Source: Planotetraspora kaengkrachanensis | GTDB taxonomy: Bacteria > Actinomycetota > Actinomycetes > Streptosporangiales > Streptosporangiaceae | Reading direction: 5' to 3' | Length of the DNA stretch: 64,000 bases | NCBI RefSeq assembly: GCF_016862895.1 | Contig: NZ_BONV01000028.1 | Location: forward strand, 62,001 to 126,000 | Shown here: piece after piece, positions 13,085-46,371 of the stretch | How the letters are laid out: each line of letters opens with the position of its first letter | Position numbering within the stretch: position 1 is the stretch's first letter | The notes under the pieces: model-generated | The model's database searches: none | Told to the model about the DNA's origin: nothing | The model's input: only the letters and a program-made list of their open reading frames with translations | Position numbers and translations under genes: made by a program

Positions 13085-13223
13085 TGCATGATCAAGAAAG
13101 ACGTTTGCGCAGGTCGCGGGACATATCGCCGAACCTGTGCATGATCACGAACTGCGTTCGCGCTGGTCAGCGCCCGCGTCGCCGAACCCGTGCATGATCA
13201 CGGCGGGGGCGTGTGCATGATCA
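13085..13223. repeat. 53-bp periodic repeat array, cluster A (core TGCATGATCA)
   Basis: The decamer TGCATGATCA occurs at 13085, 13138, 13191 and 13214, that is at spacings of 53, 53 and 23 bases. Read on the minus strand, each core is followed by a unit with GGTTCGGCGA about 12 bases on and, in the complete unit, CGCGACCTG. The array fills the space between the convergent LCP and GTPase genes; the last core is 18 bases past the GTPase stop. Related arrays lie at 45036 and 46205. Confidence 0.85.
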
Positions 13224-13240
13224 CGGCGGGGAGGGGCGGG

Positions 13241-14872
13241 TCAGCGTTTGGCTTGGGTGATCGCGGCGAAGTACTCGTTGTAGCGCTGGAGTTCACGCTC
13301 GACCGGTTGGATGACCGTCTCCTCCGCGACCGTGGTGACCCGGCGGCGCATGTCGCGCTCGAGGCGATCCCGCTCGTTGCTCGCGCCCAGAATCACGAAG
13401 TTCCGGCTCGCCACGGCCGACAGGATGCCCAGGCCGAGGACGCTGACCAGCATCAGCCCCACCCAGGGCAGGGCTCCGACGTCGCCCAGCACGCTCACCG
13501 GCGGCCTGCCGGCGTTGAAGACGCCGTACGCCAGGATCGAGCCGACCCACGCGAGCCCCACCACGAAGAGGAAGACCAGGAGGTACTGCCAGATCTTCAG
13601 CAGCCACCACCAGCCGGGCACCCGGTCGAGTGGCGGCGCCACCTCGGACAGCTCGGCGGACAGCGCCTTGGGCAGTTGGACGGACCGACCGCGTGCCGCC
13701 TGGCGAACTCCGTTCTGCCACACGTCCGGCATCCCGGCCGTGAGGCCGTCCGCGAGGGCCTGGACGGCGTTGTCCACCTCGGCCGGCTGGGCGCTGACGG
13801 CGCTGCCCACGAGGCTGCGGATGTCGTCCTTCACGGCTCCGAGCTTGAGACTGCTCAGCGGGTCGCGCCGGAGCTTGCCTGCCCACCGCGCGTACGGCCA
13901 GCCGACCCAGTCGACCGAGCGCACGCCGTAGACGTTCTCCATGGCCTCGCCGAGGGCCGCGACACCGACGGCGTCGCACAAGGCGTCGGTCAGACCGGCC
14001 TTGCGGGCGCCGTCCACCGTGGGGTCGACGTGGAGCAGGTCGGGCACGTTCTTGGCCAGGCGCGCCATGAGCCGGTCGAGGTCGGCCTCGAGCCGCTGGT
14101 AGGCCGCCCGCCGGGTGGACACCGACTCGGCGAGCACGGCCTTGAGCCCGTCGATGCCCTTGCCCGTCAGCGCGGACGTGGCGACGACCTGGGGATCGGT
14201 CACCCCTTCCCGCCTGAGCAGGTCCTCCAGATCGGCGACGCACTCGGCCTGCTCCTCGTGGCTCAACCGGTCGGCCTGATTGAGCACGAAGACCGTCACG
14301 GCGTCGTTCCCCGCGAGGTCGGTCACATACCGGCGGTGCACGGACGCGTCGGCGTACTTCTGCGGGTCGAGCACCCACACGACGAGGTCGGCGACCTGGA
14401 TCAGCCGGTTGGCCTCCGGGTCGGTGAGCGCCCGGATGGAGTCGTGGTCGGGCAGGTCGAGCAGGATGAGCCCGTGGAGCTGGCTCTCGCCCTTGTCGAG
14501 CGCGCTCGCCCGGGCGAACCGGTGCCGCCACTGGATCTGCAGCCAGTCGAGCAGGGGCCCCGCGCCCTCCAGGCCCCACACGCAGGCGTGGGTGCGGGCG
14601 GTGGTCGGCCTGCGCACCCCGATGGGCGAAAGCTCCAACCCGGAGATCGAGTTGAACAGGGACGACTTGCCGCTGCCCGTTCCCCCGGCGAGCGCCACCA
14701 CGGTGTGGTCGGGCGACAGCTTGAGCCGGTCGCCGGCCCGCAGGAGCAACTGGGCGGCCTCGGTGATGAGCGCGGGATCGATCCTGCCCTGGCCGAGCTC
14801 GACGATCTTGGAGAGTGCGGCGAGCCGAGTGCCCAGTCCGTGCCGCGTCTCGGCGGTGCTGACAGTGCTCAT
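13241..14872 (-). CDS. Dynamin-like GTPase B (YfjP-type) with C-terminal membrane helices
   Basis: 543 residues. The G domain shows G1 AGGTGSGKSS (62-71), G2-like RRPTTARTH, G3 LLDLPDHDS and G4 FVLNQADRL. After a helical middle there are two hydrophobic segments near 440-470 (WWLLKIWQYLLVFLFVVGLAWVGSILAYG) and 485-510 (VGLMLVSVLGLGILSAV), then a basic coiled helix RDRLERDMRRRVTTVAEE. This plan matches bacterial dynamin-like/YfjP GTPases that remodel or stabilise membranes; Streptomyces DynA/DynB act at sporulation septa. It follows the other GTPase gene after 37 bases. Confidence 0.87.
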   Translation of the reverse strand: MSTVSTAETRHGLGTRLAALSKIVELGQGRIDPALITEAAQLLLRAGDRLKLSPDHTVVALAGGTGSGKSSLFNSISGLELSPIGVRRPTTARTHACVWGLEGAGPLLDWLQIQWRHRFARASALDKGESQLHGLILLDLPDHDSIRALTDPEANRLIQVADLVVWVLDPQKYADASVHRRYVTDLAGNDAVTVFVLNQADRLSHEEQAECVADLEDLLRREGVTDPQVVATSALTGKGIDGLKAVLAESVSTRRAAYQRLEADLDRLMARLAKNVPDLLHVDPTVDGARKAGLTDALCDAVGVAALGEAMENVYGVRSVDWVGWPYARWAGKLRRDPLSSLKLGAVKDDIRSLVGSAVSAQPAEVDNAVQALADGLTAGMPDVWQNGVRQAARGRSVQLPKALSAELSEVAPPLDRVPGWWWLLKIWQYLLVFLFVVGLAWVGSILAYGVFNAGRPPVSVLGDVGALPWVGLMLVSVLGLGILSAVASRNFVILGASNERDRLERDMRRRVTTVAEETVIQPVERELQRYNEYFAAITQAKR

Positions 14873-14909
14873 CGATCTCCCACCGTGGTGCCGGGAAGCG
14901 TCGCCGGAG

Positions 14910-17252
14910 TCATCGTGCGACCTCGAGGTTGTACGTGGCCTGGTAGAGCCGGGTGGCGGCGGCCTCGTCCGGGATTCCCGCGCTGTCGAGTTCGTCGACG
15001 TACCGCAGGGTCTCCTCGTCGAAGAGCAGGCTGATCCGCGCCCGCAGGTCGCTCCGCGCCTTGGCGCTGATGTTGCGCAGGGACTCCGCGCCGAGCAGCC
15101 CGCGCAGCAGCCGCTGGGGCAGGGCGCTGTTGCCCTGGCCCACCGAGACGTCGGTGGTGCCGTAACCGAGCAGTCCGACGGTGAAGATCAGGGACAGGGA
15201 CTCGACGTCGAAGGAGACCAGCCGCGCCACGGACCGCTTGGTGACGCCCTCGGTCCTGATCAGCTCGGTCACGTGGTCCTGCCACGCGGTGATGGTCCGC
15301 ACGGTCCGCCGTACGACCTCTTCCGAGGGACGGCCGAGCCCGGGGGTGGCGGCGAGCCGGTCACCGGCTCCCGCGCGCTGACGCCACCGGACGACGACCT
15401 CCTCGGCCGCCCGCTGGATCGCCGAGGTGATCACCGACTCGAGCCCGGTGCGCAGGGCCGACTTCAGGGCACGGAGCCGCTCGGGCCCCTTGTGCTGCGC
15501 CTTGCCGCCACGCCGCAACTGGAGGGTGCGCATGAGATCGCCGGAGCCGGCGAAGTCCTGCCAGCGGGCGAGCACCTCGCCCCTGAGCAGCGAGCCGTTC
15601 CTGGTCGCCTCGTCGATCTCCGCCAGGGCCGCCATGTAGGCCGAGTCGACGTCGGAGCGCAGGTCGGCGCGCAACACCACCTGCGTCTCCAGATGCCTGG
15701 CCAGGGCGGGCAGCCGGGTTCTGAAGCTGTCGAAGACGCCGTTCAGCGTCGCCTGCACTGCCTCGGCTCGAAGTTCCTCGTCGACGGACATCTCCGCGAG
15801 CCACAGACGGAGGTCGGTGACCTCCTCGTCGGCCAGCCTGCCCTCGCGGACGGCCGTCTCGTTGATGACGAAGCGCTCCACGTCGGCCAGGCCGTACTCG
15901 TCGAGCATGCGGCCGAAGTGCTTGACGATGACGTCGCGGGATCTCATCGGGACCCGGGACAGGACGATGACCAGACGCGCCCCGCGTTCCTTCGCGCGGC
16001 GCAGCAGCCCCCACGACGGCGCGTCCGCGTACCGGGCGGCGGTGGTGACGAACACCCACAGGTCCGCCGCGTCCAGCATGCGATGCGCGATGTCCTGGTG
16101 TTCCTCGACGACGGAGTCGATGTCCGGCGTGTCGAGCAGCGCCACGCCCTGCGGCAGCCGCGGCGTCGCGACCAGCACGACGGAGTCGGGCCCCGTGCCG
16201 GCGTCGGCCTTGTCGACCCTGGTCAGACCGCCGAGCAGGTCGCCCTTGGCGAACCACTCGTAGTCGTCGGGGTGACAGGCGAGCACCGGGGTCCCGGTGG
16301 TGGGGCGGCGCACGCCCGTCGCCGTCACGTTCTGTGCGGCGAGCGTGTTGACCAGGGTCGACTTGCCCGCTCCGGTGGAGCCGGCCACGACGATCAGTGC
16401 GGGGGCCGTGCTCATGTGGACGCGCGGGATGACGTAGTCGTCGATCTGGGCCAGCACGGCGTCCTGGGCCTTGCGCGCATCCTCGGCGCCGGGCACGTCG
16501 AGGCCGAAGTGCAGGCCCTTGACGGCCACGCGGAGCTGGGCGAGCGCGGCGGTCAGCGCCGCCGACACCGGTTCAGGCAACGGCATCTCGCGCACGGGCA
16601 GGCCGATCGGAGACGGGGACCGGTCCGCGGCGCCCGTGTCGGCGGGCTCACCGTCCGGATCCTCACCGTCCGGATCCTCACCGGACTCCGCCCGCGGCTT
16701 CTCCACGTCTTCCTGCGACTCCCCGGGCTCCTCCAGCGGTTTCCCGGAAGCATCCTCGTCCGCGGGCCCGGCGGGAGGGTCCGTGCCTCCCGGCGCCTCG
16801 GCCCGGGCGTCGGGCCCGTCCGGCGGAGCCTCGCCCTCGTCCGGTGACCCCGCGCCCGCGCCGGCGTCGGAGGAGGCGTCGTCCTCGGCGCCGGGGGCCC
16901 CGTCCGGGCCCTCCGCGGCAGTGGACTCGGAGCCGGGCTGCTCGGGGCCGGGCTGCCCTAGGCCGGACTCCTCGGGGCCGGACTCACCCGAACCGGCGTC
17001 CGGCGCGGAATCCTCGGCCTCCGCGCGCCCGGACCCGGCGTCGTCCCCGTCGGAAACCCTGCCGGAGACCCTGCCGGAAACCCCGTCGGAATCCTTGCCG
17101 GAATCCACGTCGGGGTCCTCGTCACGGATCGAGCGGAACGTGAAGGTCTGCTCCCCGGGCGTCTCTGGCCGGCCCTCGACGCCCGGCTCCTGTGTCTCGC
17201 CGGACTGCTCGACGGCCTCGGGGTCGGGCGTGTTCTTGGCAGCCGATTTCAC
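14910..17252 (-). CDS. Dynamin-like GTPase A with long acidic N-terminal tail
   Basis: 780 residues. Residues 1-215 are a low-complexity, Glu/Asp/Gly/Pro/Ser-rich tail with repeated DPDGE-like and SGRVS-like units. The G domain starts near 285 with G1 [14 protein letters not shown] (P-loop 291-299), G2-like RRPTTGTP, G3 LLDTPDIDS and a later IVLSRVPM in the G4 position, where the usual N/TKxD is degenerate. The C-terminal half is helical with a hydrophobic stretch [14 protein letters not shown]. It overlaps the CobA-like gene by ATGA and is followed by GTPase B; the two likely form a heteromeric pair. Confidence 0.87.
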
Positions 17253-18481
17253 GGGACCCGCTCCGCTCGCACCATCTCGATCTCCTGGCCGACTCTGACG
17301 ACCTCGCCGACGATCGCGATCGCAGGCGGACGTATCCCCGCCGCGGTCACTCGTTCCGCCACAGTGGAGAGCGTGGCGGAGACAGCTCGCTGGGTGGGAA
17401 GAGTACCGTCCTGTACCACCATTACGGGAGTTTCCGGCGAACGTCCGTCTCGAATCAGCGTTCGGGCGAGTTCTCCGATGCGCTCAACTCCCATCAGCAG
17501 CACCAGAGTCCCCTGTGATCTCGCCAGCCCGGGCCAGTCGACGGTGGAGCGGGGATCGTCGGGGGCCACGTGGACGGAGATCACGTGGAACTCCTGGCTG
17601 ACCCCTCGGTGCGTGACGGGGACGCCGGCGGAGGCGGGGACGGCGACGGCGCTCGTGATGCCGGGGACCACCATCACCGGGATGCCGGCCCTCGCGCACG
17701 CGATCATCTCCTCGCCGCCGCGGCCGAAGACGAAGGAGTCTCCGCCCTTCAGCCGGACCACGAACTTGCCCTTGCGGGCGTGCTCGATGAGCAGTTCGTT
17801 GATCTTCTCCTGGGCGAGCGCGCGGCCATAGGGGATCTTCGCGGCGTCGATGAGCTCGACGTCAGGGGGCAGTTCGTCGAGCAGGGCACGTGGCGCCAGG
17901 CGGTCGGCGACGACGACGTCGGCCTGCGCGAGCAGCTGCCGTCCCCTGACGGTGATCAGTCCGGGATCCCCGGGGCCGCCGCCGACGAGCGCGACGCCGA
18001 CGGGCTTGGTGCGGTGCCGCCGGGCGTCGACGGTGCCGTCCCGCAGGGCGCCGACGACGGCGTCGCGGATGCCCGCGGCCCGCCGCGGGTCGCCTCCGGC
18101 GGTGATGGCGACGCTCACCTCGTCGACCCGGCCGCTGGCCGGCGTCCAGGCGGCGGAGGCGTCCTTGTCGTCGGCCCGCACGCACCAGATGCGCTTGGCG
18201 TCGGCCTCGGCGGCGATCGCCGTGTTGACCTCACGATGGTCGGTGCATGCGTGCACCAGCCAGGCTCCGTCGCAGTCGCCCACCTGGTACGGCCGTCGCT
18301 CCCACGTCACGCGGCCGTCGGCGATGAGGTCGTCGAGCGCCGGCGTGACGCTCGGCGAGACCAGGGTGACCGACGCTCCGGCGTCGAGCAGCGTGGGAAC
18401 GCGCCGCTGGGCGACGTGTCCGCCGCCTACGACGAGAACCCGCCGCCCGTCGAGGCGGAGGCCGAGCAGGTAGGGCGCCAT
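17249..18481 (-). CDS. cobA: Uroporphyrinogen-III C-methyltransferase fused to siroheme-synthase N-domain
   Basis: 410 residues. Residues 1-155 resemble the NAD-binding dehydrogenase/chelatase half of CysG ([31 protein letters not shown]). From ~162 the SUMT domain follows: [43 protein letters not shown] and [22 protein letters not shown]. It methylates uroporphyrinogen III to precorrin-2 and may oxidise it to sirohydrochlorin. The next genes upstream are cobT and a sirohydrochlorin chelatase, so it serves cobalamin or siroheme synthesis. Its stop overlaps the start of a dynamin-like GTPase. No cobalamin riboswitch is recognisable in the 125-base leader. Confidence 0.92.
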
Positions 18482-18606
18482 GACCCCAGTCTCCCTAATG
18501 CGTCAAGCGTGGTCTGTTAAGAGGCAAACCTACCCGTTGACCTGTGACGGCACTCACCAGATGAGACTTATCGGCAGTCCACCGGGTCTTGGGTCGATTC
18601 CGGGAG

Positions 18607-19692
18607 TCAACGCTCCTTGTCCGCCACCCCGGCGGAGTCGAACGTCGCCACGTCGTGCATGACCCGCACCGCGGCGCTGACCAGCGGATGCGCGAGCAGC
18701 CCGCCCGTGCCCTCCCCGAGGCGGAGCTCGAGGTCGACCAGGGGCCGGAGCCCGAGGTGGGCGAGCGCCACCGCGTGGCCCGGCTCGGCCGAGCGGTGCC
18801 CGGCGACGCAGTAGCCCGCCGCGTCGGGGGCGAGCGCAGCCGCGACGAGGGCGGCGGCTCCCGCGATCACGCCGTCGAGGATGACGGGCACCCGGGCCGC
18901 CGCGGCGCCGAGGATGAACCCGGCGATGGCCGCGTGCTCGAACCCTCCGACGGTCGCGAGCGCCTGGAGGACCTCGTCCTGTCCCTGGGGGACGGCTCCC
19001 GCCTCCCCGTAGCCGTTGACCGCCAGCGCGCGGCGGACCACGTCGATCTTGTGCTGGTACATGGCGTCGTCGACGCCGGTGCCGCGCCCCGTGGCGGACG
19101 CCGGTTCCCGGCCGGTGAACAGGCTGATCAGCGCGGCCGAGGCCGTGGTGTTGGCGATCCCCATGTCACCGGTGATCAGGCAGCGGTTGCCTGCCGCGAC
19201 GAGGTCCCCGGCGGTCCTGATGCCGGCGGACAGGGCCTCGATCGCCTGGTCGCGCGTCATCGCGGGGCCCTGGGACAGGTCCGCCGTGCCGTACGCGACC
19301 TTGCGGGACAGGACGTCGGGCAGCGGGGTGAGATCCGCGGCCACGCCGACGTCGACCACCGTCACCGAGGCGCCGGCCTGCGCGGCGAACGCGTTGGCGA
19401 CGGCTCCTCCCGCGGCGAAGTTGGCCACCATCTGTGCGGTGACCTCCTGCGGCCAGGGGCTGACCCCCTGGGCGTGGACACCGTGGTCGGCGGCGAAGAT
19501 GGCCAGTGCGACGGGCACGGGCATCGGCGGGGGGCAGGCCGCGGCGACACCGGCGAGCCGCACCGCGACGTCCTCGAGGACGCCGAGGGAGCCGCGCGGC
19601 TTCGTGAGACGGTCCTGACGGGTCCGTGCCTCGGCCATCGCGACCGGGTCCACCGGCCAGATGGCCGAGACGGTCGCGTCGAGCAGGGTCAT
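18607..19692 (-). CDS. cobT: Nicotinate-nucleotide-dimethylbenzimidazole phosphoribosyltransferase
   Basis: 361 residues from ATG 19692 (MTLLDATVSAIWPVD), with GGAG 6 bases upstream. Family features are LTKPRGSLGVLEDVAVRLAG, IFAADHGVHAQGVSPWPQEVTAQMV, and CLITGDMGIANTTASAALI. It makes alpha-ribazole phosphate for the lower ligand of cobalamin. It starts 10 bases after the chelatase gene. The 77-residue in-frame extension upstream is only a shadow of the acidic chelatase tail. Confidence 0.95.
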   Translation of the reverse strand: MTLLDATVSAIWPVDPVAMAEARTRQDRLTKPRGSLGVLEDVAVRLAGVAAACPPPMPVPVALAIFAADHGVHAQGVSPWPQEVTAQMVANFAAGGAVANAFAAQAGASVTVVDVGVAADLTPLPDVLSRKVAYGTADLSQGPAMTRDQAIEALSAGIRTAGDLVAAGNRCLITGDMGIANTTASAALISLFTGREPASATGRGTGVDDAMYQHKIDVVRRALAVNGYGEAGAVPQGQDEVLQALATVGGFEHAAIAGFILGAAAARVPVILDGVIAGAAALVAAALAPDAAGYCVAGHRSAEPGHAVALAHLGLRPLVDLELRLGEGTGGLLAHPLVSAAVRVMHDVATFDSAGVADKER

Positions 19693-19702
19693 GCTCACTC
19701 CT

Positions 19703-20719
19703 TCAGACGGCGCTGGGGATCCCCGTCCCGGCGTCGAGCCCAGGCTCGATCTCCGCGTCGAACTCCGCCTCGAGTTCGGCGCCGATCTCCGCGTCGAGCT
19801 CGTCGTCGGCGACTGGCTCGCGCTCGGCGCCTGCTTCGGCGTCGGGGGACGCGGCGAGCTTGGCGCGCGCAGGCGATTCGATCGTGAGCATGTCATGGTA
19901 GCGGCGCGCCGCGCGCCAATCATCCGCGCCCGCGAGGGCCTCCTCGTAACGGTCGACGACGACGTCCGCGAGCCCTTCGCAGTCGCCGATGACCTCTGCG
20001 CAGCGGATGTCGAGCCCCTCGTGGTTGGCGCCGTAGGCCAGGGCCTGCGCCCAGATGCGCTCGAGCACCGCCCCGGCGAACAGGATGTACGGCAGGACGA
20101 TCACCCGCTTGGCGCCGAGTCTGCGGCAGCGCTCCAGACCGCCGGGGACCCCGGGACGGGTGTGCGAGACGTAGGCCGTCTCGACCGTGAGCAGGTCGGA
20201 CGCGTGGGTCTCCCAGAAGAGCCTGGAGACCCGGTGGACCTCGGCGTTCACCTCGGGGTCCGCGGATCCGTGGCCGACCAGCACGACGGCCGTCTCGGCG
20301 GGCCCGATGAACTCCGGCGGCTCGTCGGTCACCAGGCGTGGCATCTCCGCGCGGGCGTCCGCGAGCCGCTCCGCGAGGATGTCGAGCACGCGGGGGTCCG
20401 CGCCGAGCGGCCTGCCGAGGTCGTACTCGAACGTCGGGTGCCGCTCCTGCTCGAGCGCCAGCGTTCCCGGGATGTCGCCGAGGGCGTGCCGGTCGCCGGT
20501 GAGGCTCAGGGGCACCGCGATCACGTGGTGGTGCCCGCGTGCCACGAGGGAGGAGACGGAGTCGCTCAGCGGAGGGCGGGCGTTGGTGATGAAGCCGCCG
20601 CTCACCTCCGCGGGCAGTGCGTCGAGGCGGCAGCGGAGGCGGTGTACGAATCTGCCGAATTCGGCCACGCCGGTCTCATCGTGGGTTCCGTGTCCGATGA
20701 GCAACAGCGGCGGTTTCAT
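19703..20719 (-). CDS. Sirohydrochlorin chelatase (CbiX-like) with acidic C-terminal tail
   Basis: 338 residues from ATG 20719 (MKPPLLLIGHGTHD); GGGAG sits 8 bases before it, favouring this over ATG 20734. Two CbiX/CbiK-like halves are seen: LLLIGHGTHDETGVAEF and VVLVGHGSADPEVNAEVHR, each with the metal-binding His-Gly region, plus KRVIVLPYILFAGAVLERI. It inserts cobalt or iron into sirohydrochlorin. The final ~65 residues form an acidic repeat-like tail (DAEIGAELEAEFDAEIEPGLDAG) not found in the basic enzyme. It is first of a cbiX-cobT-cobA order. Confidence 0.88.
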   Translation of the reverse strand: MKPPLLLIGHGTHDETGVAEFGRFVHRLRCRLDALPAEVSGGFITNARPPLSDSVSSLVARGHHHVIAVPLSLTGDRHALGDIPGTLALEQERHPTFEYDLGRPLGADPRVLDILAERLADARAEMPRLVTDEPPEFIGPAETAVVLVGHGSADPEVNAEVHRVSRLFWETHASDLLTVETAYVSHTRPGVPGGLERCRRLGAKRVIVLPYILFAGAVLERIWAQALAYGANHEGLDIRCAEVIGDCEGLADVVVDRYEEALAGADDWRAARRYHDMLTIESPARAKLAASPDAEAGAEREPVADDELDAEIGAELEAEFDAEIEPGLDAGTGIPSAV

Positions 20720-20844
20720 GTACTGATCTCCCATGCCTTGACCTGCGGAGACGTGATCCGGCTCGTGAGGATAACCCTCCGGGCCCAATCATGGGCGCCT
20801 CTTGACCGATAGGCCCAGGTGGCGAGGAAATTTTTTACCTTTTC

Positions 20845-21921: not shown

Positions 21922-22064
21922 AGCGCCACTCCAGGGAGATGCCGATTTGCCATCTGCTTCCTCGCCCACCTGGGCCTTCGCACGTTACGGACGGGCCCTC
22001 GCCGATGTTTGGGGCGGCCGGGCCGGGTACGAGGCATCTCATGACCCTATTCGGAGGTGAGGTC

Positions 22065-22364
22065 ATGAGTATCCAACGTGGCGGCGCCGAACACGCTCCC
22101 CGTCTCGGCCGCGACCGGGAGCACGGGCCCGGCGGCGGCATCGGCATCACGCCCGCCGACGTGGAACGCCGCGGCAACCTGGCGAAATGGCTCAGCGACG
22201 CCCGCTTCCCCGCGGACGGACATGACCTCCTCACCCATGCCGGCGCCAAGAACGCCCCCGACGCCGTGCTGCAGGCCCTGCGCGACCTGCCCGACCTCAG
22301 GTACCAGAACGTCGGGCAGGTCGCCGAGGCCCTCGGCCTGGGGGTGGAACGGCACCATCAGTGA
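22065..22364 (+). CDS. DUF2795 domain protein
   Basis: 99 residues from ATG 22065, with GGAGGTGAGG just upstream. The first 40 residues are polar and Gly/Arg-rich; the C-terminal half (ERRGNLAKWLSDARFPADGHDLLTHAG...VLQALRDLPDLRYQNVGQVAEALG) fits the DUF2795 helical domain, which is frequent in actinobacteria. Function is not known. It is divergent from the double GNAT gene and convergent with lutC, 22 bases away. Confidence 0.82.
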   Translation: MSIQRGGAEHAPRLGRDREHGPGGGIGITPADVERRGNLAKWLSDARFPADGHDLLTHAGAKNAPDAVLQALRDLPDLRYQNVGQVAEALGLGVERHHQ

Positions 22365-22386
22365 GAGTGGCGCCACCGGTGAGAGC

Positions 22387-25207: not shown

Positions 25208-25225
25208 ATGCCCTCCCGCGATGTA

Positions 25226-35513: not shown

Positions 35514-35527
35514 CTTGTTTGTACAAG
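35514..35527. promoter_or_regulatory. Candidate GntR/UTRA operator
   Basis: CTTGTTTGTACAAG contains CTTG...CAAG as outer half sites and the perfect octamer TTGTACAA. It is placed 57 bases upstream of the regulator start and 43 upstream of the importer start, as expected for a shared operator. Recognition by this regulator is inferred. Confidence 0.55.
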
Positions 35528-35569
35528 TTGCTCTAGGTTCGATCCACATATCTCAGTGGGAGGCACCCG

Positions 35570-38468: not shown

Positions 38469-39550
38469 ACGGGGCCAAGGTGGAGCTGCGCGGGCTTCGT
38501 CGGAACTTCTCCGGCACCGCCGCGCTGGACGGGCTGGACCTCACCATCGAGTCGGGCGAACTGATCGCCCTCCTCGGGCCCTCGGGGTGCGGCAAGACCA
38601 CGGCCCTGCGGTGTGTCGCGGGCTTCGAGCAGCCGGACGAGGGCGCCGTGCTGGTCGACGGCAAGGACATCACCCGGGTGCCCGCGAACAAGCGGGACGC
38701 GGGCATGGTGTTCCAGTCCTACAGCCTGTTCCCCAACCTGAACGTCAGGGACAACGTGGCCTTCGGCCTCCGGGTGCGCAAGGTGCCCGCCACCAAGCGG
38801 CACGCCCGTGCGCAGGAACTGCTGGAGCTGATCGGCCTGCCGCACATCGGCGGGCGGTTCCCGCACCAGCTGTCGGGTGGGCAGCAGCAGCGTGTCGCGC
38901 TGGCCCGCGCGCTCGCTCTGGAGCCCCGGGTGCTGCTGCTCGACGAGCCGCTGTCCGCGCTCGACGCCAAGGTCCGGGTCTCGCTCCGTGAGGAGATCCG
39001 GCGGCTTCAGCTCTCGCTCGGCATCACGACGATCTTCGTGACGCACGACCAGGAGGAGGCCCTGTCGATGGCCGACCGGGTCGCCGTGCTGCGCGCGGGC
39101 CGCCTGGAGCAGGTCGCCGACCCGGCCACGCTGTACGACCGCCCCGCGACGCCGTTCGTGGCGGAGTTCGTCGGCACGATGAACCGCGTCCCCGGCCGGA
39201 TCGAGGGGGACCAGGTGGCGGTGCTCGGGCAGACGCTGCCCGTGGACGGCGACCTCCCCGGAACGCCGGACGTGGACGTGCTGATCCGGCCGGAGGCCGT
39301 GCTCCTCACGCCGGACTCGGAGGCGGACGGCATGGTCCTGGTCTCCTCGTTCCGCGGGTCGACCGCGCAGCTGCGCGTGCAGCTCGGCGACATCGAGGTG
39401 CTCGCCGACGTGCCCGGGCACGACAGCGTGCGGCTCGCTCCCGGCACCCGGGTGCGGGTCAAGCTCGTGGAACGGCCCGTACTGGTCTCGGCGTCCTCGG
39501 GCGCCACGACCCCGGCGACGGCTCCGGTCCCGGAGCACGATGTCGTCTGA
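38465..39550 (+). CDS. ABC transporter ATP-binding protein (PotA/UgpC-like)
   Basis: 361 residues; ATGA overlap with permease 2. Walker A GPSGCGKTT, Q-loop VFQSYSLFPNLNV, signature LSGGQQQRVALARAL, Walker B LLLLDEPLSALDA and switch FVTHDQEEALSM are intact. The C-terminal ~110 residues form a TOBE regulatory domain (VDVLIRPEAVLL). It energises the importer. Confidence 0.95.
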   Translation: MNGAKVELRGLRRNFSGTAALDGLDLTIESGELIALLGPSGCGKTTALRCVAGFEQPDEGAVLVDGKDITRVPANKRDAGMVFQSYSLFPNLNVRDNVAFGLRVRKVPATKRHARAQELLELIGLPHIGGRFPHQLSGGQQQRVALARALALEPRVLLLDEPLSALDAKVRVSLREEIRRLQLSLGITTIFVTHDQEEALSMADRVAVLRAGRLEQVADPATLYDRPATPFVAEFVGTMNRVPGRIEGDQVAVLGQTLPVDGDLPGTPDVDVLIRPEAVLLTPDSEADGMVLVSSFRGSTAQLRVQLGDIEVLADVPGHDSVRLAPGTRVRVKLVERPVLVSASSGATTPATAPVPEHDVV

Positions 39551-40217
39551 ACCACCGAAGTCGTCCGGGAAGCTGGGCGCCGTCCTGTTCGACATGGACG
39601 GCACAGTCGTGGACACCGAGGGACTGTGGTGGGCGGCCTGCTTCGAGGTCGCCCTCCACCTCGGATCCGCCCTGGCGGCTTCGGACCAGCACATCCTGCT
39701 CGGCCTGTCGATCGAGGACGCCGCGGAGCACCTCATCCGGATGGCCGACGGCGCGCCGTCGCGGCGGGAGGTGGAGACCATGATCACAAAGGCCTTCACC
39801 GTCCGGGTCGAGGCGGGCGTGACAACGCTGCCGGGAGCGCTCCCGTTGCTCGACGCACTGGATGCGGCGGGGATTCCGGCGGCCCTGGTCAGCGCGTCGC
39901 CCCGGCGGATCGTCGACATCGTGCTCGAGACGATCGGCGCGCACCGGTTCCAGTTGTCGATCGCGGCCGAGGAGAGCGCCAGGAACAAGCCGGCGCCCGA
40001 CCCCTACCTGACGGCCATGAGGAAGCTCGGGGTCGATCCGGAGGACTGCGTGGCGATCGAGGACAGCCCCACGGGCGTCGCCTCCGCCCGCGCCGCCGGT
40101 TGTGCGGTCATCCTGGCGGGCGGCGCGGACGCCGTACCCGCCGGGGTGGCCAGGGTGTCCACGCTGGAGAGTGTGGATCTGCCGCTGCTGCGGCTGCTCG
40201 TGTCGCGCCGCGACTGA
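39540..40217 (+). CDS. HAD-superfamily phosphatase (beta-phosphoglucomutase-like)
   Basis: 225 residues; ATG 39540 lies 11 bases before the ATPase stop. HAD motif I VLFDMDGTVVDTEG with Asp18/Asp20, motif II LVSASP, motif III Lys in RNKPAPDPY and motif IV EDSPTGVASARAAG are all present, with an alpha-helical cap between I and II. It should dephosphorylate a small sugar- or organophosphate. As last gene of the importer operon it likely acts on the imported compound; a phosphonate hydrolase of the PhnX type is not supported by motif I. Confidence 0.9.
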   Translation: MSSEPPKSSGKLGAVLFDMDGTVVDTEGLWWAACFEVALHLGSALAASDQHILLGLSIEDAAEHLIRMADGAPSRREVETMITKAFTVRVEAGVTTLPGALPLLDALDAAGIPAALVSASPRRIVDIVLETIGAHRFQLSIAAEESARNKPAPDPYLTAMRKLGVDPEDCVAIEDSPTGVASARAAGCAVILAGGADAVPAGVARVSTLESVDLPLLRLLVSRRD

Positions 40218-40307
40218 CGGATCCCGGGGGCGGGAACGCGGGAACAACCGGTGACATGACACTGGTTGGGCATGATCATAGGTGAAGCCTGAAGACAGGA
40301 GTCGCAC

Positions 40308-41267
40308 ATGCGTGCCGTCGTCGTTCCCTCCCACGGCGATTCGTCGGCCCTGCGCGTGACGGAGGTCCCCGATCCGGTGCCCGGGCCCGGAGAGGTCCTC
40401 GTCGACGTGGCCGCGAGCGGGGTCAACTTCATCGACGTCTACCACCGCGAGGGCCGCTATCCCCTGCCGCCCCCGCGTGTGGTCGGCTCCGAGGGCGCGG
40501 GCACGGTGTCGGCCGTCGGCGAGGGCGTGACCGACATCGTGGTCGGCGACCGGGTGGGATGGGTCAACATCCTCGGCTCCTACGCCGAGAAGGCCGTGAT
40601 CCCTGCGGCGAGGGCGATCGTGCTGCCCGATGGGTTGTCGCCGGAGACGGCGGCGGCCGTGCTCCTCCAGGGGCTCACCGCCCACTACCTCACGCACGCG
40701 ACGCATGAGATCCGGCAGGGCGACGACGTACTCGTCCACGCGGCCGCCGGCGGGATGGGCCTGCTGCTGACGCAGATGGCCAAGCTGCGGGGCGCCCGGG
40801 TGATCGGCACGGTGTCCAATGCGGAGAAGGAGAAGCTCGCGCGGGAGGCCGGGGCCGACGAGGTGTTCGGCTACGACGGCTTCGCCGAGCGCGTCAAGGC
40901 GCTCACCGGCTCCGGCGTCCACGTCGTATACGACGGCGTCGGCGCGGCCACCTTCGACGGCTCGCTCGCGTCGCTGCGGCCGCGCGGCCTGCTCGCCCTG
41001 TACGGCGCGGCCAGCGGGCCGGTCCCGCCGTTCGACCTCCAGCGGCTGAACCAGGCGGGCGCGCTGTTCGTCACCCGGCCGTCCCTGGGCTGGTACACCT
41101 CGACCCGCGAGGAGTTGCTCGCGCGGGCCGACGACCTGCTGGGCTGGGTCGCCTCGGGCGCGCTCAAGGTGCACGTCTTCCAGCGGTACGCGCTGGAGGA
41201 CGTGCGGCAGGCGCACGACGACCTCGAGGCCCGCCGTACGACCGGCAAGGTGCTGCTGATCCCCTAG
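40308..41267 (+). CDS. NADPH:quinone oxidoreductase (zinc-free MDR)
   Basis: 319 residues from ATG 40308 with GACAGGAG before it. It shows GPGEVLVDVAASGVNFIDVYHREGRYPLPPPRVVGSEGAG, the quinone reductase signature, and the NADPH fold VLVHAAAGGMGLLLTQMAKLRGARVIGT. Zinc ligands of true alcohol dehydrogenases are missing. It reduces quinones or enones with NADPH. It stands alone 90 bases behind the HAD gene. Confidence 0.93.
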   Translation: MRAVVVPSHGDSSALRVTEVPDPVPGPGEVLVDVAASGVNFIDVYHREGRYPLPPPRVVGSEGAGTVSAVGEGVTDIVVGDRVGWVNILGSYAEKAVIPAARAIVLPDGLSPETAAAVLLQGLTAHYLTHATHEIRQGDDVLVHAAAGGMGLLLTQMAKLRGARVIGTVSNAEKEKLAREAGADEVFGYDGFAERVKALTGSGVHVVYDGVGAATFDGSLASLRPRGLLALYGAASGPVPPFDLQRLNQAGALFVTRPSLGWYTSTREELLARADDLLGWVASGALKVHVFQRYALEDVRQAHDDLEARRTTGKVLLIP

Positions 41268-41304
41268 CCGGCGTCGGCCTGGCCTTGTCCCGAGGCCGGC
41301 GGTG

Positions 41305-41415
41305 TCACGTCGCGGCGTGGAAGATCAGCACGCCGAGGTAGACGCCGCCGGCGACGGCGACCACATGAAGGACGATCGACAACACGCGGACCGCGGTGGG
41401 GCTCATGGGCGTCAT
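41305..41415 (-). CDS. Small single-pass membrane protein, 36 residues
   Basis: 36 residues from ATG 41415 (MTPMSPTAVRVLSIVL...), whose ATGA overlaps the stop of the SHOCT gene; ATG 41406 is an alternative giving 33. A hydrophobic helix covers almost the whole chain (VLSIVLHVVAVAGGVYLGVLIF), followed by HAAT. The overlap and the membrane-type composition support a real small protein. Function unknown; it may act with the SHOCT membrane protein. Confidence 0.65.
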   Translation of the reverse strand: MTPMSPTAVRVLSIVLHVVAVAGGVYLGVLIFHAAT

Positions 41416-42134
41416 CCGTTCAGCAGGCGATTCTTGGCGGCGGTGTACTCGGCGTCGTCGAGCCCCCCTGCCTGGTGCAGGGCGGCCAGCCGTTCGAGCT
41501 CGTCGACGAGGCCCGGCGCCGAGACGGAGCCGGGTCGGGAGCCGGAGCCAGGGGCGGGCTCGGGTGGGACCGGGGCGGACGGCCGGCGGCCGCGCCGATC
41601 CCGATCACCAGGGAGCTCCACGGTGGTGGTCCAGCGCACCTCACCGGGCCGCCTGACGAACCCTTGCGGCGTGGGCTCCGGCGGGGCGACGCCCCAGAAG
41701 ACCCGCCGCAGCGCGTCCCGGTTCGCCAGGAACAGCAGCGGGAGGCCGCCCATGAGGATGAACAGCACGGCGCAGACCATGAAGCCCCAGTCGACGGGGT
41801 ACTCGGGATTGACGGCCGCGTCCAGGAAGGCCCAGCCGAGGCTGATGAACAACGCCGGCCACGCCAGCACGACGATCTTCGGGCCCACCGGCAGGACACT
41901 GAGGGCGTAGAGGCCGGTCGAGACCAGCCCGCCGAGGACCGAGACGGGCATGATCCAGGCGATGCCCTCCGGGCAGGACGTCTCGACGACGTACGGCCCG
42001 CCCGCCCCGCAACTGCCGCCGAGTGTCATGACCGCGCTGGCGCCGAGGTAGAGCAGGGTGATCGCGCAGCTCAGCGCGCAGAGCCCGACGAACAGCCCGA
42101 TGGACCGCCGTACGAGCCGAAGGGGGGTGATCAT
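41412..42134 (-). CDS. SHOCT-domain membrane protein
   Basis: 240 residues. Four TM helices are visible at about 12-38, 60-80, 85-105 and 115-137, with a two-Cys extracellular loop (GGSCGAGGPYVVETSCPEG) between the first two. A Pro/Arg-rich linker leads to a C-terminal SHOCT motif LVDELERLAALHQAGGLDDAEYTAAKNRLL. SHOCT domains are short oligomerising or nucleic-acid-related tails; the function of this protein is not known. Confidence 0.88.
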   Translation of the reverse strand: MITPLRLVRRSIGLFVGLCALSCAITLLYLGASAVMTLGGSCGAGGPYVVETSCPEGIAWIMPVSVLGGLVSTGLYALSVLPVGPKIVVLAWPALFISLGWAFLDAAVNPEYPVDWGFMVCAVLFILMGGLPLLFLANRDALRRVFWGVAPPEPTPQGFVRRPGEVRWTTTVELPGDRDRRGRRPSAPVPPEPAPGSGSRPGSVSAPGLVDELERLAALHQAGGLDDAEYTAAKNRLLNG

Positions 42135-42200
42135 GGTTCGAATATAGATCGGAACCGGCCCGCCGCCAGGGGTTGCGAGGACATCGGTCCGCGACGCGGT

Positions 42201-43253
42201 CTACGGCAACGGCTCCTCCGGCCACTCCAGGAGGCGGGCTCCGAGCACCGCCGTCTCCAGCGTGAACCGCTGGGTGGGGTCGGTCGGCGAGAATCCGGTG
42301 AGCCTGCGGATCCGCTCCAGGCGGTAGGTGATGGTCCTCGTGCTGATGCCGAGCCTGCGGGCCGCCGCGGTGTGGTTCCCCTGGACGGCGAAGACCGCCT
42401 CCAGGGTCTCCAGCAGGGCCTCGGGCCCGCCGCGGGCCTTGGTGAGAGGTGCGAGCACGGTGGTGACGAGGTCGACGATCGCGCCCCTGTCCCGGAGCAG
42501 GACGGGGAAGACGAGCAGATCGGCCGCCTTCAGCACCTGCGGGCGCAGGCCGAGCCGCTCGCCGAGCTCGATGGCGCCGGCGGCCTCCTGGTAGGAGGTG
42601 ACGATGCCCCCGGGGCCCGAGTGCGGCCTGCCGACGCCGGCCCGCCAGGTCGTCAGCGCCGCACGGACATGATGGACGAACTCGCCCCCTGCCGCGCCGA
42701 GCGAGGCCGGCGAGACGCACACGAGCAGGCCGTCCCGCACCGCCACCAAAATGTTGTGCGAGCCGAACCTGGCGACCAGAGCCTGCTCGATCCTGCGGAT
42801 CAGCGGGTCTCCTCCTGTCAGGGGTTCGCCGGCCTTGACGACGGTCGCCATGTAGGCCTCCGCGAGGCGCAACCCGAAGTGCTCGGCCCGCCGGGCGTCG
42901 GCCCGGCCCTGGAGCAGGTCGGCGACGAACTCGCGGCGGCCGTCCTCCTCCTTCCTGATGGCCGTGAGCTGGGCCTCCTCATAACCCTCCGCGAAGGCCG
43001 CCATGCTCCGCCGTACGGCGGAGAACGCTCCCCCCTCCGTGAGCTCGGCGGCGTGCAGGCAGGCGTCGGCGAGCAGGCGCAGGGGGATGCCGCGCTCGGC
43101 GGCGAGCGCTCCGCAGGCACGCATGTCGTCCACTTCGGCCCGGCTGGGTAACCGGCCCGTCGCGACCGTGGCGGCGAGCACCGAAAGGTACCCGCCGAGA
43201 AGATCGGCGGGCACCCCGGTGGCCTCGCTCACCCGAGCGAGAACGTCATTCAT
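42201..43253 (-). CDS. PucR/CdaR-type regulator in an ABC-exporter operon
   Basis: 350 residues; the ATG at 43253 overlaps the permease stop (TGATG). The middle contains a GGDEF-like degenerate domain (RRIEQALVARFGSHNILVAV..., TSYQEAAGAIELGERLG) and the C-terminus the PucR helix-turn-helix: ALLETLEAVFAVQGNHTAAARRLGISTRTITYRLERIRRLTG. Such regulators sense metabolites. Its place as third gene of the operon suggests that it controls the exporter. Confidence 0.9.
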   Translation of the reverse strand: MNDVLARVSEATGVPADLLGGYLSVLAATVATGRLPSRAEVDDMRACGALAAERGIPLRLLADACLHAAELTEGGAFSAVRRSMAAFAEGYEEAQLTAIRKEEDGRREFVADLLQGRADARRAEHFGLRLAEAYMATVVKAGEPLTGGDPLIRRIEQALVARFGSHNILVAVRDGLLVCVSPASLGAAGGEFVHHVRAALTTWRAGVGRPHSGPGGIVTSYQEAAGAIELGERLGLRPQVLKAADLLVFPVLLRDRGAIVDLVTTVLAPLTKARGGPEALLETLEAVFAVQGNHTAAARRLGISTRTITYRLERIRRLTGFSPTDPTQRFTLETAVLGARLLEWPEEPLP

Positions 43254-44053
43254 CAGACGCCTACATCACGCCGCTCGAAGGCCAGCACGGCCGTCATCGC
43301 CAGCACGGCGGTCGCCGCGAGGATCACAAGGTAGTCCCCCACCGGCCAGCCCTGGAAGACCGGCCGTCCGTCCAGGTAGTAGTGGAACGGCGAGACCCAG
43401 CGCAACCATGAGATCGCGTCGACGCTCTTGCCGAGCGTCTCGATCACGTAGCCCCCGACGGCGTAGCCTCCGCCCACCGCGAGCGCGAGGGCCCTCTTGC
43501 CCGTTGCCGCGCCGAGGGCCAGCGCCAGTGTGCCGAAGAAGAAGGCGATCAGGAACAGCCCGGTGTGCGCGGCGACGATGTTGCCCGCCGGCACCTTGAG
43601 GTCGCCCACCGCCGCCAGAGCCAGAACCAGGATCAGCGTCACCAGCGCGACGGCCAGCAGGCCGAGCGAGAAGGCCGCCCAGCGCTCCAGGACGAGCCGC
43701 CTGCGGTCGATCGGCAGCGTCATCGTGAGCTCCAGCGTCCCCTCCTCCTCGGGGACGGCGATCGCCCGGGTCCCGAGGGTCATCGCGAACATGATCAGGA
43801 GCAGCGGGACAAGGAGCTGGTAGACGACCGTCTGGAGGTAGCCGGTGCCCGACGCGATGTCGGCGAGCCCGCCCATGAGGTCCTTCAGCGGGCCGGGGTA
43901 CTTCGACAGCGCGGCCTGCTGGTAGAAGTCCGGATTGCTCCGGATGCTCGGATAGATCGACAGATAGAGCGACAGGAAGGCGGAGATGCCGATCAGCCAC
44001 CCGATGACGCTCCGGCGGTATTCACCGAGGGTCTTACGCACCAGCGTGGGCAC
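43253..44053 (-). CDS. ABC transporter permease (ABC-2 type)
   Basis: 266 residues, six TM helices (VIGWLIGISAFLSLYLSIY, LLVPLLLIMFAMTLGTRAI, LGLLAVALVTLILVLALAAV, AHTGLFLIAFFFGTLALALG and the final pair). After the second helix it has PEEEGTLELTMTLPIDRRRLVLERW, the motif of the ABC-2 permease intracellular loop. It overlaps the end of the ATPase gene by 20 bases. Exported substrate unknown. Confidence 0.92.
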   Translation of the reverse strand: MPTLVRKTLGEYRRSVIGWLIGISAFLSLYLSIYPSIRSNPDFYQQAALSKYPGPLKDLMGGLADIASGTGYLQTVVYQLLVPLLLIMFAMTLGTRAIAVPEEEGTLELTMTLPIDRRRLVLERWAAFSLGLLAVALVTLILVLALAAVGDLKVPAGNIVAAHTGLFLIAFFFGTLALALGAATGKRALALAVGGGYAVGGYVIETLGKSVDAISWLRWVSPFHYYLDGRPVFQGWPVGDYLVILAATAVLAMTAVLAFERRDVGV

Positions 44054-44948
44054 GGGGGGCCTCCTCGCTGTAGTAGGTGAGGAAGATCTCTTCGAGGTCG
44101 GGCTCCGAGCTGACCATGTGGACCACGGTGAACTTCGCCGCGGCCTTGATGAGGGCGTCGGGCCGGCCGTCTATCGTGCAGCGCAGGTTCGCGCCCTCCA
44201 CCGTGACGTCCCGCACTCCGGGCAGCCCCTCGAACGCCTCCCTGGGCACGGGTGCGTCGAAGTGGAACTCGACGTGCCGGACGGCCCGCTCCCGCAGGGC
44301 CGCGACGTCCTCGACCGCCACCAGCCGGCCGGATCGGACGATGCCCACGCGATCGGCCACGTTCTGGACCTCGGCCAGCACGTGGGACGACATCAGCACG
44401 GTGCGCCCTGACGTGCGGACCTCCCGGACCATGGCCAGGAACTCCTGCTGGACCAACGGGTCGAGTCCGCTCGTCGGCTCGTCGAGGATGAGCAGCTCCG
44501 GCTCGTGCATGAACGCCTGGATGAGGCCGACCTTCTGCTTGTTGCCCTTGGAGAGCTGGCCCATCCTGATCGACAGGTCGGCGTCCAGCCGCTCGGCGAG
44601 CTCGTCGATCCGCCCCCGGCTCACCCCGCCCCGGACGTCGGCCATGAAGTTCAGGAAGTCATGGGCCCGCTCCCGCCCTTCGAGCGCGAGCTCGCCGGGC
44701 AGGTATCCGATCCGCCCGCGCACCGCGCTGTCGCGGGTGTCGGCCCCGAGGACGGTCGCGCGGCCGGAGGTCGGCCGGATCACGTCGAGGAGCAGCCGGA
44801 TCGTCGTCGTCTTCCCAGCGCCGTTGGGCCCGAGATATCCGAAGACCTCCCCCGGCTGGATCTGGAGGGTGAGGTCCTCCAGACCCTTGCGCCTGCCGTA
44901 GAACTTGGTCAGTCCTTCGGTCTCCACCACTGCTGTCATGCTCGCCAT
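44034..44948 (-). CDS. ABC exporter ATP-binding protein (DrrA/CcmA-like)
   Basis: 304 residues from ATG 44948; ATG 44939 three codons later is equally likely because AGGA is either 2 or 11 bases upstream. Walker A GPNGAGKTTT, Q-loop, signature variant LSKGNKQKVGLIQAF, Walker B LLILDEPTSGLD and H-switch SHV are seen; a C-terminal ~80-residue regulatory part ends EPDLEEIFLTYY, typical of DrrA-like proteins. The K for G change in the LSGGQ motif (LSKGN) is common in this subgroup. Confidence 0.92.
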   Translation of the reverse strand: MASMTAVVETEGLTKFYGRRKGLEDLTLQIQPGEVFGYLGPNGAGKTTTIRLLLDVIRPTSGRATVLGADTRDSAVRGRIGYLPGELALEGRERAHDFLNFMADVRGGVSRGRIDELAERLDADLSIRMGQLSKGNKQKVGLIQAFMHEPELLILDEPTSGLDPLVQQEFLAMVREVRTSGRTVLMSSHVLAEVQNVADRVGIVRSGRLVAVEDVAALRERAVRHVEFHFDAPVPREAFEGLPGVRDVTVEGANLRCTIDGRPDALIKAAAKFTVVHMVSSEPDLEEIFLTYYSEEAPRAHAGA

Positions 44949-45035
44949 GTTCCTGCGGCGGCCCCGCCCCGCGGTATGCCGGAGATAGGACACTTCCGCC
45001 CCCGTTCTCTTCTGACATCCGGCATTGTTCGGTGG

Positions 45036-45205
45036 TGATCATGCACACGTTCGTGAAGAGCCCCCGCGACCTGGCCCCTCCCCTCCCCGTGATCATGCAC
45101 GCTTTCGGGAATGTGCGTCCCGACCTGGGCTCCTCCGGTTCGTGATCATGCACACATTCGTGGACTTGCACCGCGACCTGCGGCTTCGCCGTCCGTGATC
45201 ATGCA
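45036..45205. repeat. 53-bp periodic repeat array, cluster B
   Basis: TGATCATGCA, the reverse complement of the cluster A core, occurs at 45036, 45090, 45143 and 45196 (spacings 54, 53, 53). Every unit shares TTCG about 4-5 bases after the core and CGACCTG near its centre. The last core supplies the GCA codon and TGA stop of cobD. The array lies between the ABC ATPase start and the cobD end and is inverted with respect to cluster C. Confidence 0.88.
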
Positions 45206-46152
45206 CGGCGACGCGTACGGCGGAGCAGTCTCGCCCCCGCCGCCACGGCCACCGCCGAGAGCGACACCGCCCGGGCCAGCCGTACGGACCTGCGGACGTC
45301 CGCGACCGCGGGGCGAGGGCCGTCGCCGAGTTCGGGCCGGCGCTCCACGCGTCCGCCGTAGTTGTTGGCGCCGCCGAGCCGTACGCCGAGGGCCCCGGCG
45401 AAGGCGGCCTCGCACCGCCCGGCGTTGGGGCTGGGGTGGCGATGGCCGTCGCGGCGGAGCACGGCGAGCGCGCGGCGCGGGGACCCGCCGGCGACCGGCG
45501 CGAGGGCCGTCGTGAGCAGGCCGGTCAACCGCGCGGGCACGAGGTTGGCGACATCGTCCAGCCGAGCGGAGGCCCAGCCGAACCGGTTGTAGCGCTGCGA
45601 CCGGTGGCCGACCATGGCGTCCAGGGTGTTGATCGCGCGGTAGGCGACCAGGCCGGGCACCCCCGCGACCGCTCCCCAGAAGAGCGGCGCGACGACGGCG
45701 TCGGAGGTGTTCTCGGCGATCGACTCGACGGTCGCCCTGGCCAGTTCCTCCGCGTCGAGACCCGCGGGGTCGCGGCCGCACAGGTGCGGCAACCGCTCAC
45801 GCGCGGCGCGGAGATCACCCGACTCCAGGGAGCCGGCCATGTGGGCGCCCTCCTTCGCGAGGGTCGTGCCCCCGAGGACGGCCCAGGTCGCGGCGGCCGT
45901 CACGGCCGTACGGGCGAGCGGACGCGAGCGGGTCAGCCGGTCGGCGAGCAGCCCGAGACCTCCGGTGGCACCGACGCAGAGCAAGGTGAACGCGGTTCCG
46001 GCAAGCCGCGAGTCCCTATATATGCGCTTTTCCAGGGCGGAGACGCGACTGCCGAACACCGCCACCGGATGTCCTCGCCGCGGGTCCCCCACGACCGCGT
46101 CGACCGCCGCGCCCAGAAGGATCCCCGCCGTCGTGCCGCTTCCCCTGATCAC
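45199..46152 (-). CDS. cobD: Adenosylcobinamide-phosphate synthase (CbiB/CobD)
   Basis: 317 residues from GTG 46152 (VIRGSGTTAGILLGAAVDAVVGDPRRGHPVAVFG). A longer frame from 46215 begins inside repeat cluster C and is unlikely. Family features are DPRRGHPV near the start, LARATVESIAENTSDAVVAPLFW, NTLDAMVGHRSQRYNRFGWASARLDDVANLVPAR and PNAGRCEAAFAGALGVRLGG. It is an integral membrane enzyme joining cobyric acid with aminopropanol phosphate. The last two codon positions (GCA TGA) come from a repeat core. No riboswitch is recognisable. Confidence 0.92.
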   Translation of the reverse strand: MIRGSGTTAGILLGAAVDAVVGDPRRGHPVAVFGSRVSALEKRIYRDSRLAGTAFTLLCVGATGGLGLLADRLTRSRPLARTAVTAAATWAVLGGTTLAKEGAHMAGSLESGDLRAARERLPHLCGRDPAGLDAEELARATVESIAENTSDAVVAPLFWGAVAGVPGLVAYRAINTLDAMVGHRSQRYNRFGWASARLDDVANLVPARLTGLLTTALAPVAGGSPRRALAVLRRDGHRHPSPNAGRCEAAFAGALGVRLGGANNYGGRVERRPELGDGPRPAVADVRRSVRLARAVSLSAVAVAAGARLLRRTRRRA

Positions 46153-46204
46153 CTGGGCATTCTGGCGTATTCCTGGGCGTGCACGGCATGCGGGGAGGGG
46201 CTCA

Positions 46205-46371
46205 TGCATGATCACGACGAGGGTTCGCCCAGGCCGCGGGGAGCGTCGAACCCGCGCATGATCACGGACGGCGAAGCCGCAGGTGGCGGTGCAGATTTCC
46301 GAAAGTGTGCATGATCACGGGGAGAGGAGGGGGCAGGTCGCGAGGGCTCTTCACGAATCTGTGCATGATCA
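46205..46371. repeat. 53-bp periodic repeat array, cluster C
   Basis: TGCATGATCA cores start at 46205, 46255 (variant CGCATGATCA), 46308 and 46362, spacings 50, 53 and 54. Read on the minus strand, its unit between 46362 and 46308 matches the first unit of cluster B at about 39 of 44 positions, and the next matches the third unit of B at about 36 of 43. It is thus an inverted, shuffled copy of cluster B. It lies between cobD and the phosphotransferase, starting 20 bases from the stop of the latter. Confidence 0.88.

What the first reader, a model, noticed from the sequence alone, without database searches (positions are those of the whole stretch)
13085..46371. Undescribed 53-bp periodic repeat family with TGCATGATCA core
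Twelve cores at three sites (13085/13138/13191/13214; 45036/45090/45143/45196; 46205/46255/46308/46362) recur at 53-54 bases with one 50 and one 23. Between the cores the units share TTCG shortly after the core and CGACCTG near the middle, so it is a long unit and not just a short palindrome. The exact phase of 53 (about five helical turns) puts every TGATCA palindrome on the same DNA face, which fits a protein-binding array (nucleoid, segregation or replication-related) as well as a REP-like element. All three arrays sit in non-coding DNA.
Basis: seen in the sequence. Interest (0 to 1): 0.8.

Follow-up and report, generated by a model that had tools for sequence, protein, structure and literature searches.

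The report
Outward-facing 53-bp intergenic repeat arrays
The repeats are real: they belong to a large set of regularly spaced DNA arrays lying mostly between gene ends in a group of soil actinomycetes, and they look like binding sites kept by selection for a protein not yet identified.

Summary
Confirmed, and far larger than seen. The 12 cores are where stated (11 exact, 46255 one mismatch). The host genome (Planotetraspora clade) has 613 TGCAWGATCACG. Arms of 2-7 cores read outward; 348 of 389 neighbouring exact cores are 53 bp apart; paired arms often flank a 13-bp centre (18 of 68 pairs). Arrays lie in 22 of 118 convergent, 27 of 475 tandem and 2 of 122 divergent gaps. Units at different loci share only short boxes, which hardly change between species while the rest differs by about 29% in matched units. 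Positions are inherited, yet cores switch together between genera. One species is losing its arrays. The same core is abundant, with other spacings, in a few distant actinobacterial families. The REP hallmarks tested were not met: no Y1 transposase in 5 of 8 array carriers, no unit hairpin covariation. Best reading: boundary arrays bound by an unidentified protein, BIME-like in role; an ArgR-type protein is a weak lead. Binding and function were not shown.

The parts
13085..13223 (+). Arm 1, outward to the right: four exact cores at 13085, 13138, 13191, 13214 (spacings 53, 53, 23)
   Evidence: array at the orthologous place in G125, G022 and G077, one core left in G104
13224..13240 (+). G-rich terminal tract between the outer core and the stop of the minus-strand gene 13241-14872
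   Evidence: sequence; tract seen across arms
45036..45205 (-). Arm 2, outward to the left: four exact cores at 45036, 45090, 45143, 45196 (54, 53, 53)
   Evidence: conserved place in G125, G022, G077, G059, one core left in G104
45199..45201 (-). Stop codon TGA of cobD/cbiB inside the innermost core of arm 2
   Evidence: same overlap in five relatives
45199..46152 (-). cobD/cbiB gene lying between the two diverging arms (start is my prediction; the open frame reaches 46215)
   Evidence: PF03186, 3.6e-96
46205..46371 (+). Arm 3, outward to the right: cores at 46205, 46255 (one mismatch), 46308, 46362 (50, 53, 54)
   Evidence: conserved place in G125, G022, G077
46372..46391 (+). Terminal tract (partly G-rich) before the stop of the minus-strand gene 46392-47213
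   Evidence: sequence

Best explanation
The arrays are chromosomal binding sites, kept by selection, for a sequence-specific DNA-binding protein not yet identified. Each arm is a row of sites, a 20-bp core box (CGAAnnTGTGCATGATCACG) plus a middle box (GCAGGTCRG) every 53 bp, about five helical turns, ending in a G-rich tract; two arms often point away from a dyad centre. The protein would line up along one face of the DNA and form a nucleoprotein block between neighbouring genes, most often convergent ones: a boundary that limits read-through, holds supercoils or pins the nucleoid, in the way proposed for BIMEs. Shown: anatomy, placement, constraint, inherited positions, joint core switches, loss in one lineage. 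Inferred: that a protein binds, that it acts on double-stranded DNA, and what the block does.
For: Fixed spacing with free sequence between boxes: 348 of 389 exact neighbours at 53 bp. Box constraint: GA of CGAA has 0 mismatches in all five species comparisons (12 to 62 unit pairs) while variable positions differ by 0.15-0.29 (CGAA was not used to pick units). Units at different loci alike in both halves: 0 of 4,864 pairs, so shared boxes are not recent copies. At two loci the array stays at the same gene end while all cores differ between genera (TGCAAGATCACG in G034, TGCATGATCACG or near variants in Planotetraspora), at a third G215 mixes both versions. Avoidance of divergent gaps, 2 of 122. 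The core scores as an ARG-box-like operator: 0 of 2,000 letter shuffles reach it.
Against: No binding protein identified. No gene-content test was possible. In distant families with the same core the spacing is not fixed, which weakens the helical-face argument. Loss in G104 (24 cores against 85-93 at 14 shared loci) shows the arrays are dispensable. Facing gene ends is not strict: 62 of 195 arms face a gene start, and single arms in tandem gaps split 13 to 7. The matched units were chosen to be at least 60% alike at variable positions, and core conservation there is inflated because cores were used to find units.
Confidence: 0.45

Rival explanations
1. A selfish, non-autonomous mobile element (MITE- or REPIN-like): a dyad with outward cores and C/G-rich ends, moved by an enzyme encoded elsewhere and tolerated where it harms least.
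For: Patchy occurrence in unrelated families of the class (G325 289, G384 287, G531 101, G323 35, G443 29, G366 22 copies); inverted architecture with a terminal tract found on arms facing gene ends and gene starts alike; intergenic placement avoiding promoters; clean absence at locus B in G104.
Against: No recent copies: 0 of 4,864 unit pairs from different loci alike in both halves. Array positions shared across species at the loci compared and, at three loci, between genera. Boxes conserved long after separation. No Y1 transposase in 5 of 8 array carriers; no viral, plasmid or phage match (the last two with one arm only). The tree places the locus-B absence as a loss.
Confidence: 0.25
2. 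An RNA-level element of transcript ends: a terminator, Rho-loading site, ribosome-stalling or mRNA-protecting sequence.
For: Outer core a median 17.5 bp from the stop codon in arms facing gene ends (118 of 178 arms face ends); leader between stop and core C 0.54, G 0.19 against 0.36-0.39 and 0.33-0.35 elsewhere, similar in g65; paired arms fold strongly as RNA (8 of 8 pairs z below -2, mean -12.4) and 11 of 32 gene-sense arms have z below -2.
Against: The same C/G-rich tract occurs on arms facing gene starts (G 0.508 against 0.511), so it belongs to the array and not to transcript ends. No stem covariation in the unit. Exact 53-bp phase has no obvious meaning for single-stranded RNA. Pair folding follows from inverted arms sharing boxes.
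Confidence: 0.15
3. A recombination target, like neisserial intergenic mosaic elements: cores are sites for a recombinase or for homologous exchange that reshuffles genes between arms.
For: A 426-nt gene is inverted in G104 with cores at the junctions, while G000, G125, G022, G077 and G059 share the other orientation; unit halves copied within and across arms; one predicted gene between arms in 7 of 63 pairs.
Against: One inversion found among the regions compared; copying can come from ordinary recombination; aligned gene order is otherwise largely collinear.
Confidence: 0.1

Closest known systems
REP / BIME elements (abstract of PMC2817692; passages of PMC3733652 and PMC12306157)
   Same: More than 100 copies per genome, intergenic, many near stop codons, composite regularly spaced arrays; proposed roles in protein binding, chromosome organisation and termination
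   Different: Here units within an arm run in one direction, 53 bp apart, and diverge from a centre; the core is not a stem-loop; no Y1 transposase in 5 of 8 array carriers; core ends do not carry the GTAG tag
Neisserial intergenic mosaic elements with dRS3 repeats (passages of PMC3898611)
   Same: A 20-bp conserved box separating variable stretches in intergenic arrays; linked to rearrangement
   Different: dRS3 is ATTCCC(N8)GGGAAT, RS units are 30-160 bp of repeat families; here the spacing is fixed at 53 bp, between-box sequence is unique, and arms are polar
ARG boxes bound by ArgR, S. coelicolor (PMC5839063: passages and the section with the box table)
   Same: Gel-shift-positive fragments have boxes with CGTGATCATGCA (SCO5864), TGCATGATCA (SCO2686_B0) and TGCAAGATCA (SCO3943_B0), both core versions of these arrays
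   Different: ARG boxes are degenerate 20-bp operators, single or in pairs, mostly near gene starts; here the core is nearly invariant and in rows away from promoters
MIRU and BOX repeats (recalled, no call)
   Same: Intergenic modular repeats of about 45-100 bp
   Different: Sequences and dyad layout differ as far as recalled; not compared here

Membership tests
REP / BIME | high copy number in intergenic DNA | tested here: met
   613 core copies in G000; gap classes
REP / BIME | each unit an imperfect palindrome able to form a stem-loop | tested here: not met
   none of the 40 highest mutual-information pairs links positions 25-30 with 47-52; single units fold little better than shuffles, mean z -0.64, 5 of 32 below -2
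REP / BIME | cognate RAYT (Y1 transposase) | tested here: not met
   PF01797: 0 matches in G000, G022, G104, G125, G059; 4 in G077, 1 each in G034 and G084, 10 in G065, 1 in G097; draft genomes
REP / BIME | GTAG or CGTC tag at one end | tested here: inconclusive
   no GTAG or CGTC in the core box or middle box of the consensus; not searched systematically
Neisserial intergenic mosaic elements | dRS3 sequence ATTCCC(N8)GGGAAT | tested here: not met
   consensus has no such box; definition
MITE / REPIN-type mobile element | near-identical dispersed copies | tested here: not met
   0 of 4,864 between-locus unit pairs alike in both halves
MITE / REPIN-type mobile element | target-site duplication at an empty site | tested here: inconclusive
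   one array-free site (locus B, G104) was inspected; no clear duplication seen, and the tree makes it a loss
ARG-box array (ArgR-type protein) | core scores as an ARG box | tested here: met
   34-box model without core strings: five lineage sequences in the top 0.009-0.27% of background; 0 of 2,000 letter shuffles reach the score; one motif tried, after the fact
ARG-box array (ArgR-type protein) | bound by ArgR or a paralog | not testable with these tools
Intrinsic terminator | GC-rich hairpin followed by a T run in each arm | not tested
   the terminator scan was not run; unit folding only

The most novel reading that the evidence does not exclude
A chromosome-wide boundary system of actinomycetes: a dedicated DNA-binding protein and, by rough division of 613 cores, some 150-200 outward-facing arms between genes, whose recognition sequence changes as a set between genera while the arrays stay in place, and which has arisen or been kept separately in several families of the class.
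Probability: 0.25. Interest if true: 0.85.

Novelty: new variant of a known kind. Interest (0 to 1): 0.6.

Why it matters
Intergenic repeats are often taken for debris or mobile elements. Here spacing and recognition boxes are conserved between species, the boxes change as a set between genera, and close relatives carry few arrays, so the partner protein could be found by comparing gene content of carriers and losers. That would make the old question of what such arrays do between genes directly testable.

Tried and rejected
Hairpin in each unit (CAGGT with ACCTG): no covariation. RAYT-driven REP: not met in 5 of 8 array carriers. Long-hairpin element: paired arms fold strongly, which follows from inverted arms sharing boxes. 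A terminator with a C-rich leader looked strong until the same tract was found on arms facing gene starts; kept as a rival. Viral contigs, plasmids and phages: no match (by pattern; with the arm 46180-46400 only; near records may be left out by the tool). One search used a pattern with the second gap too short; its counts are void and one search replaced it. In one search many single matches outside the clade look coding. G255 (13 matches): the listed ones are similar repeats mostly on one contig, judged by eye as coding. G400: a 27-bp perfect tandem repeat. Papers: no report of this repeat found with Planotetraspora + repeat (5 papers), six terms on intergenic convergent-gene repeats in Actinobacteria (1 paper), at least three of Streptosporangiaceae, intergenic, repeat, palindromic (12 of 4,104 listed), and six core strings (10 papers, of which I opened PMC5839063 only); most subscription journals are not held. 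Limits: genes come from my own simple codon-usage predictor; G000 loci were fetched because they hold arrays, so rates are inflated; one search compared 48 query proteins (duplicates included) and found 8 distinct genes with relatives in the g1 loci held, 4 of them with a core at the 3' end there.

Full report
WHAT WAS CHECKED. Chance gives about 0.02 exact copies in the window and 1.29 with one mismatch allowed, against 19 found. The arm 45036-45205 lies on the minus strand and 46205-46371 on the plus strand; they diverge and flank a cobD/cbiB gene. The innermost left core contains that gene's stop codon; the same overlap occurs in G104, G022, G125, G077 and G059.

GENOME-WIDE. The window lies in an 8.77-Mb genome of 96 contigs. 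G000 has 178 + 176 strict double cores against 0 + 0 for the reversed pattern. Of 297 family genomes 12 have any: the five of genus g1, G059 with 218, and six with one or two. A looser pattern (GATCACG twice, 52-54 bp apart) gives 424, 624, 620, 143 and 609 in G000, G022, G077, G104 and G125, 434 in G059, 171 and 39 in two g34 genomes, and 179, 57, 54, 49 and 17 in five g65 genomes; G255 has 13, G167 10, the others 0-8.

ANATOMY. In 201 distinct arms of the g1 and G059 loci held there are 2-7 cores, 3-5 in 186. Neighbouring exact cores are 53 bp apart in 348 of 389 cases. The unit consensus from 101 G000 units: TGCATGATCACG, a weak G..GT, GCAGGTCRG at +24 to +32, CGAA at +45 to +48, then the next core. 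Of 68 arm pairs, 18 have a 13-bp centre, 28 at most 20 bp, 32 between 21 and 150, 8 above 500. In g65 (read) and g34 (from coordinates) the centre can be 2 bp, a 26-bp inverted repeat. Beyond the outer core a 20-nt tract is G 0.51, C 0.20.

PLACEMENT. Arrays sit in 22 of 118 convergent, 27 of 475 tandem and 2 of 122 divergent gaps of regions partly chosen for arrays. Of 195 arms with a neighbour, 133 face a gene end and 62 a gene start. Single arms in tandem gaps split 13 to 7. Much of the gene-end bias is therefore avoidance of promoters. A C-rich leader between stop and core (C 0.54, G 0.19) first suggested termination, but the tract is equally strong where the arm faces a gene start, so it is part of the array.

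CONSTRAINT AND HISTORY. Units at different G000 loci are unlike outside the boxes: 0 of 4,864 pairs alike in both halves, against 1 of 94 within arms and 2 of 92 across arms. Between species the boxes hold while the rest drifts: for 28 unit pairs of G000 and G125, core 0.037 mismatches per site (mostly its first base), CGAA 0.045, variable positions 0.29. Core figures are biased by how units were found; CGAA is not. A tree of five genes with G059 as outgroup groups G000 with G104 and G022 with G125, G077 outside them. At 14 loci held in four species, cores with at most one mismatch number 85 (G000), 24 (G104), 93 (G125) and 91 (G022). G104 lacks one array cleanly (locus B) and shows scattered core changes; in it a 426-nt gene is inverted with cores at the junctions.

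OTHER GENERA AND FAMILIES. g34 uses TGCGAGAAACTGCAAGATCACG and near variants; g65 has TGCGACAAACTACAAGATCACG at the outer end of the arms read. At two loci the array is at the same gene end in G034 and in Planotetraspora with different cores; at a third, G215 mixes both versions where G059 has one. Across 335 genomes of the class, TGCAWGATCACG numbers 289 in G325, 287 in G384, 101 in G531, 35 in G323, 29 in G443 and 22 in G366, all outside the family, 613 in G000 and 65 in G119; the rest have 0-7, reversed-pattern controls 0-2. In the eight G384 and four G325 stretches read, cores again form outward arms, with other neighbouring boxes and unfixed spacing from 32 to about 70 bp. The shared 12-mer with different surroundings points to a shared recogniser, or to convergence.

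A LEAD ON THE PROTEIN. A string search found the core in an ARG box of a gel-shift-positive S. coelicolor fragment. A model from 34 boxes without core strings puts five lineage sequences in the top 0.009-0.27% of background, and 0 of 2,000 letter shuffles of the core reach it; the core was the best place in 65 of 101 units. This is one motif, tried after the fact. ArgR is expected in most actinomycetes (recalled), which fits a core shared between families but not the losses; a paralog would fit better. No genome search was left to look for one.

VERDICT. A real, large and constrained family of intergenic arrays, closest in kind to BIMEs and neisserial mosaic elements but failing defining tests of each. 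Most likely protein-binding boundary arrays; the protein and the effect are not shown.

Noticed in passing
L031:8095-8573 versus L051:7758-8235: A 426-nt gene next to an array is inverted in G104 relative to five relatives, with array cores at both junctions.
   Followed up: partly
L284-L295 (G384 and G325): Two actinobacteria of other families carry nearly 300 copies each of the same 12-mer in outward arms with their own neighbouring boxes.
   Followed up: partly
L296-L297 (G366): In a third family the core caps a long GC-rich hairpin downstream of genes, more like a REP doublet.
   Followed up: no
G084 versus G034; g65 genomes: Array numbers differ strongly within genera (171 versus 39; 179 versus near background), so loss or gain is frequent.
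   Followed up: no
L049:7135-7250, L038:11058-11173, window 45143 with 46255: Some unit pairs are identical from the core to the middle box and differ after it, as if half-units were copied along or between arms.
   Followed up: partly
L164-L170: Gene order downstream of the gene at locus A differs between genera, while G000, G022, G077 and G059 keep an array at its end.
   Followed up: no
G400:C2:256786-257089 and 1130823-1131126: Unrelated perfect 27-bp tandem repeat that also matched the 53-bp pattern.
   Followed up: no
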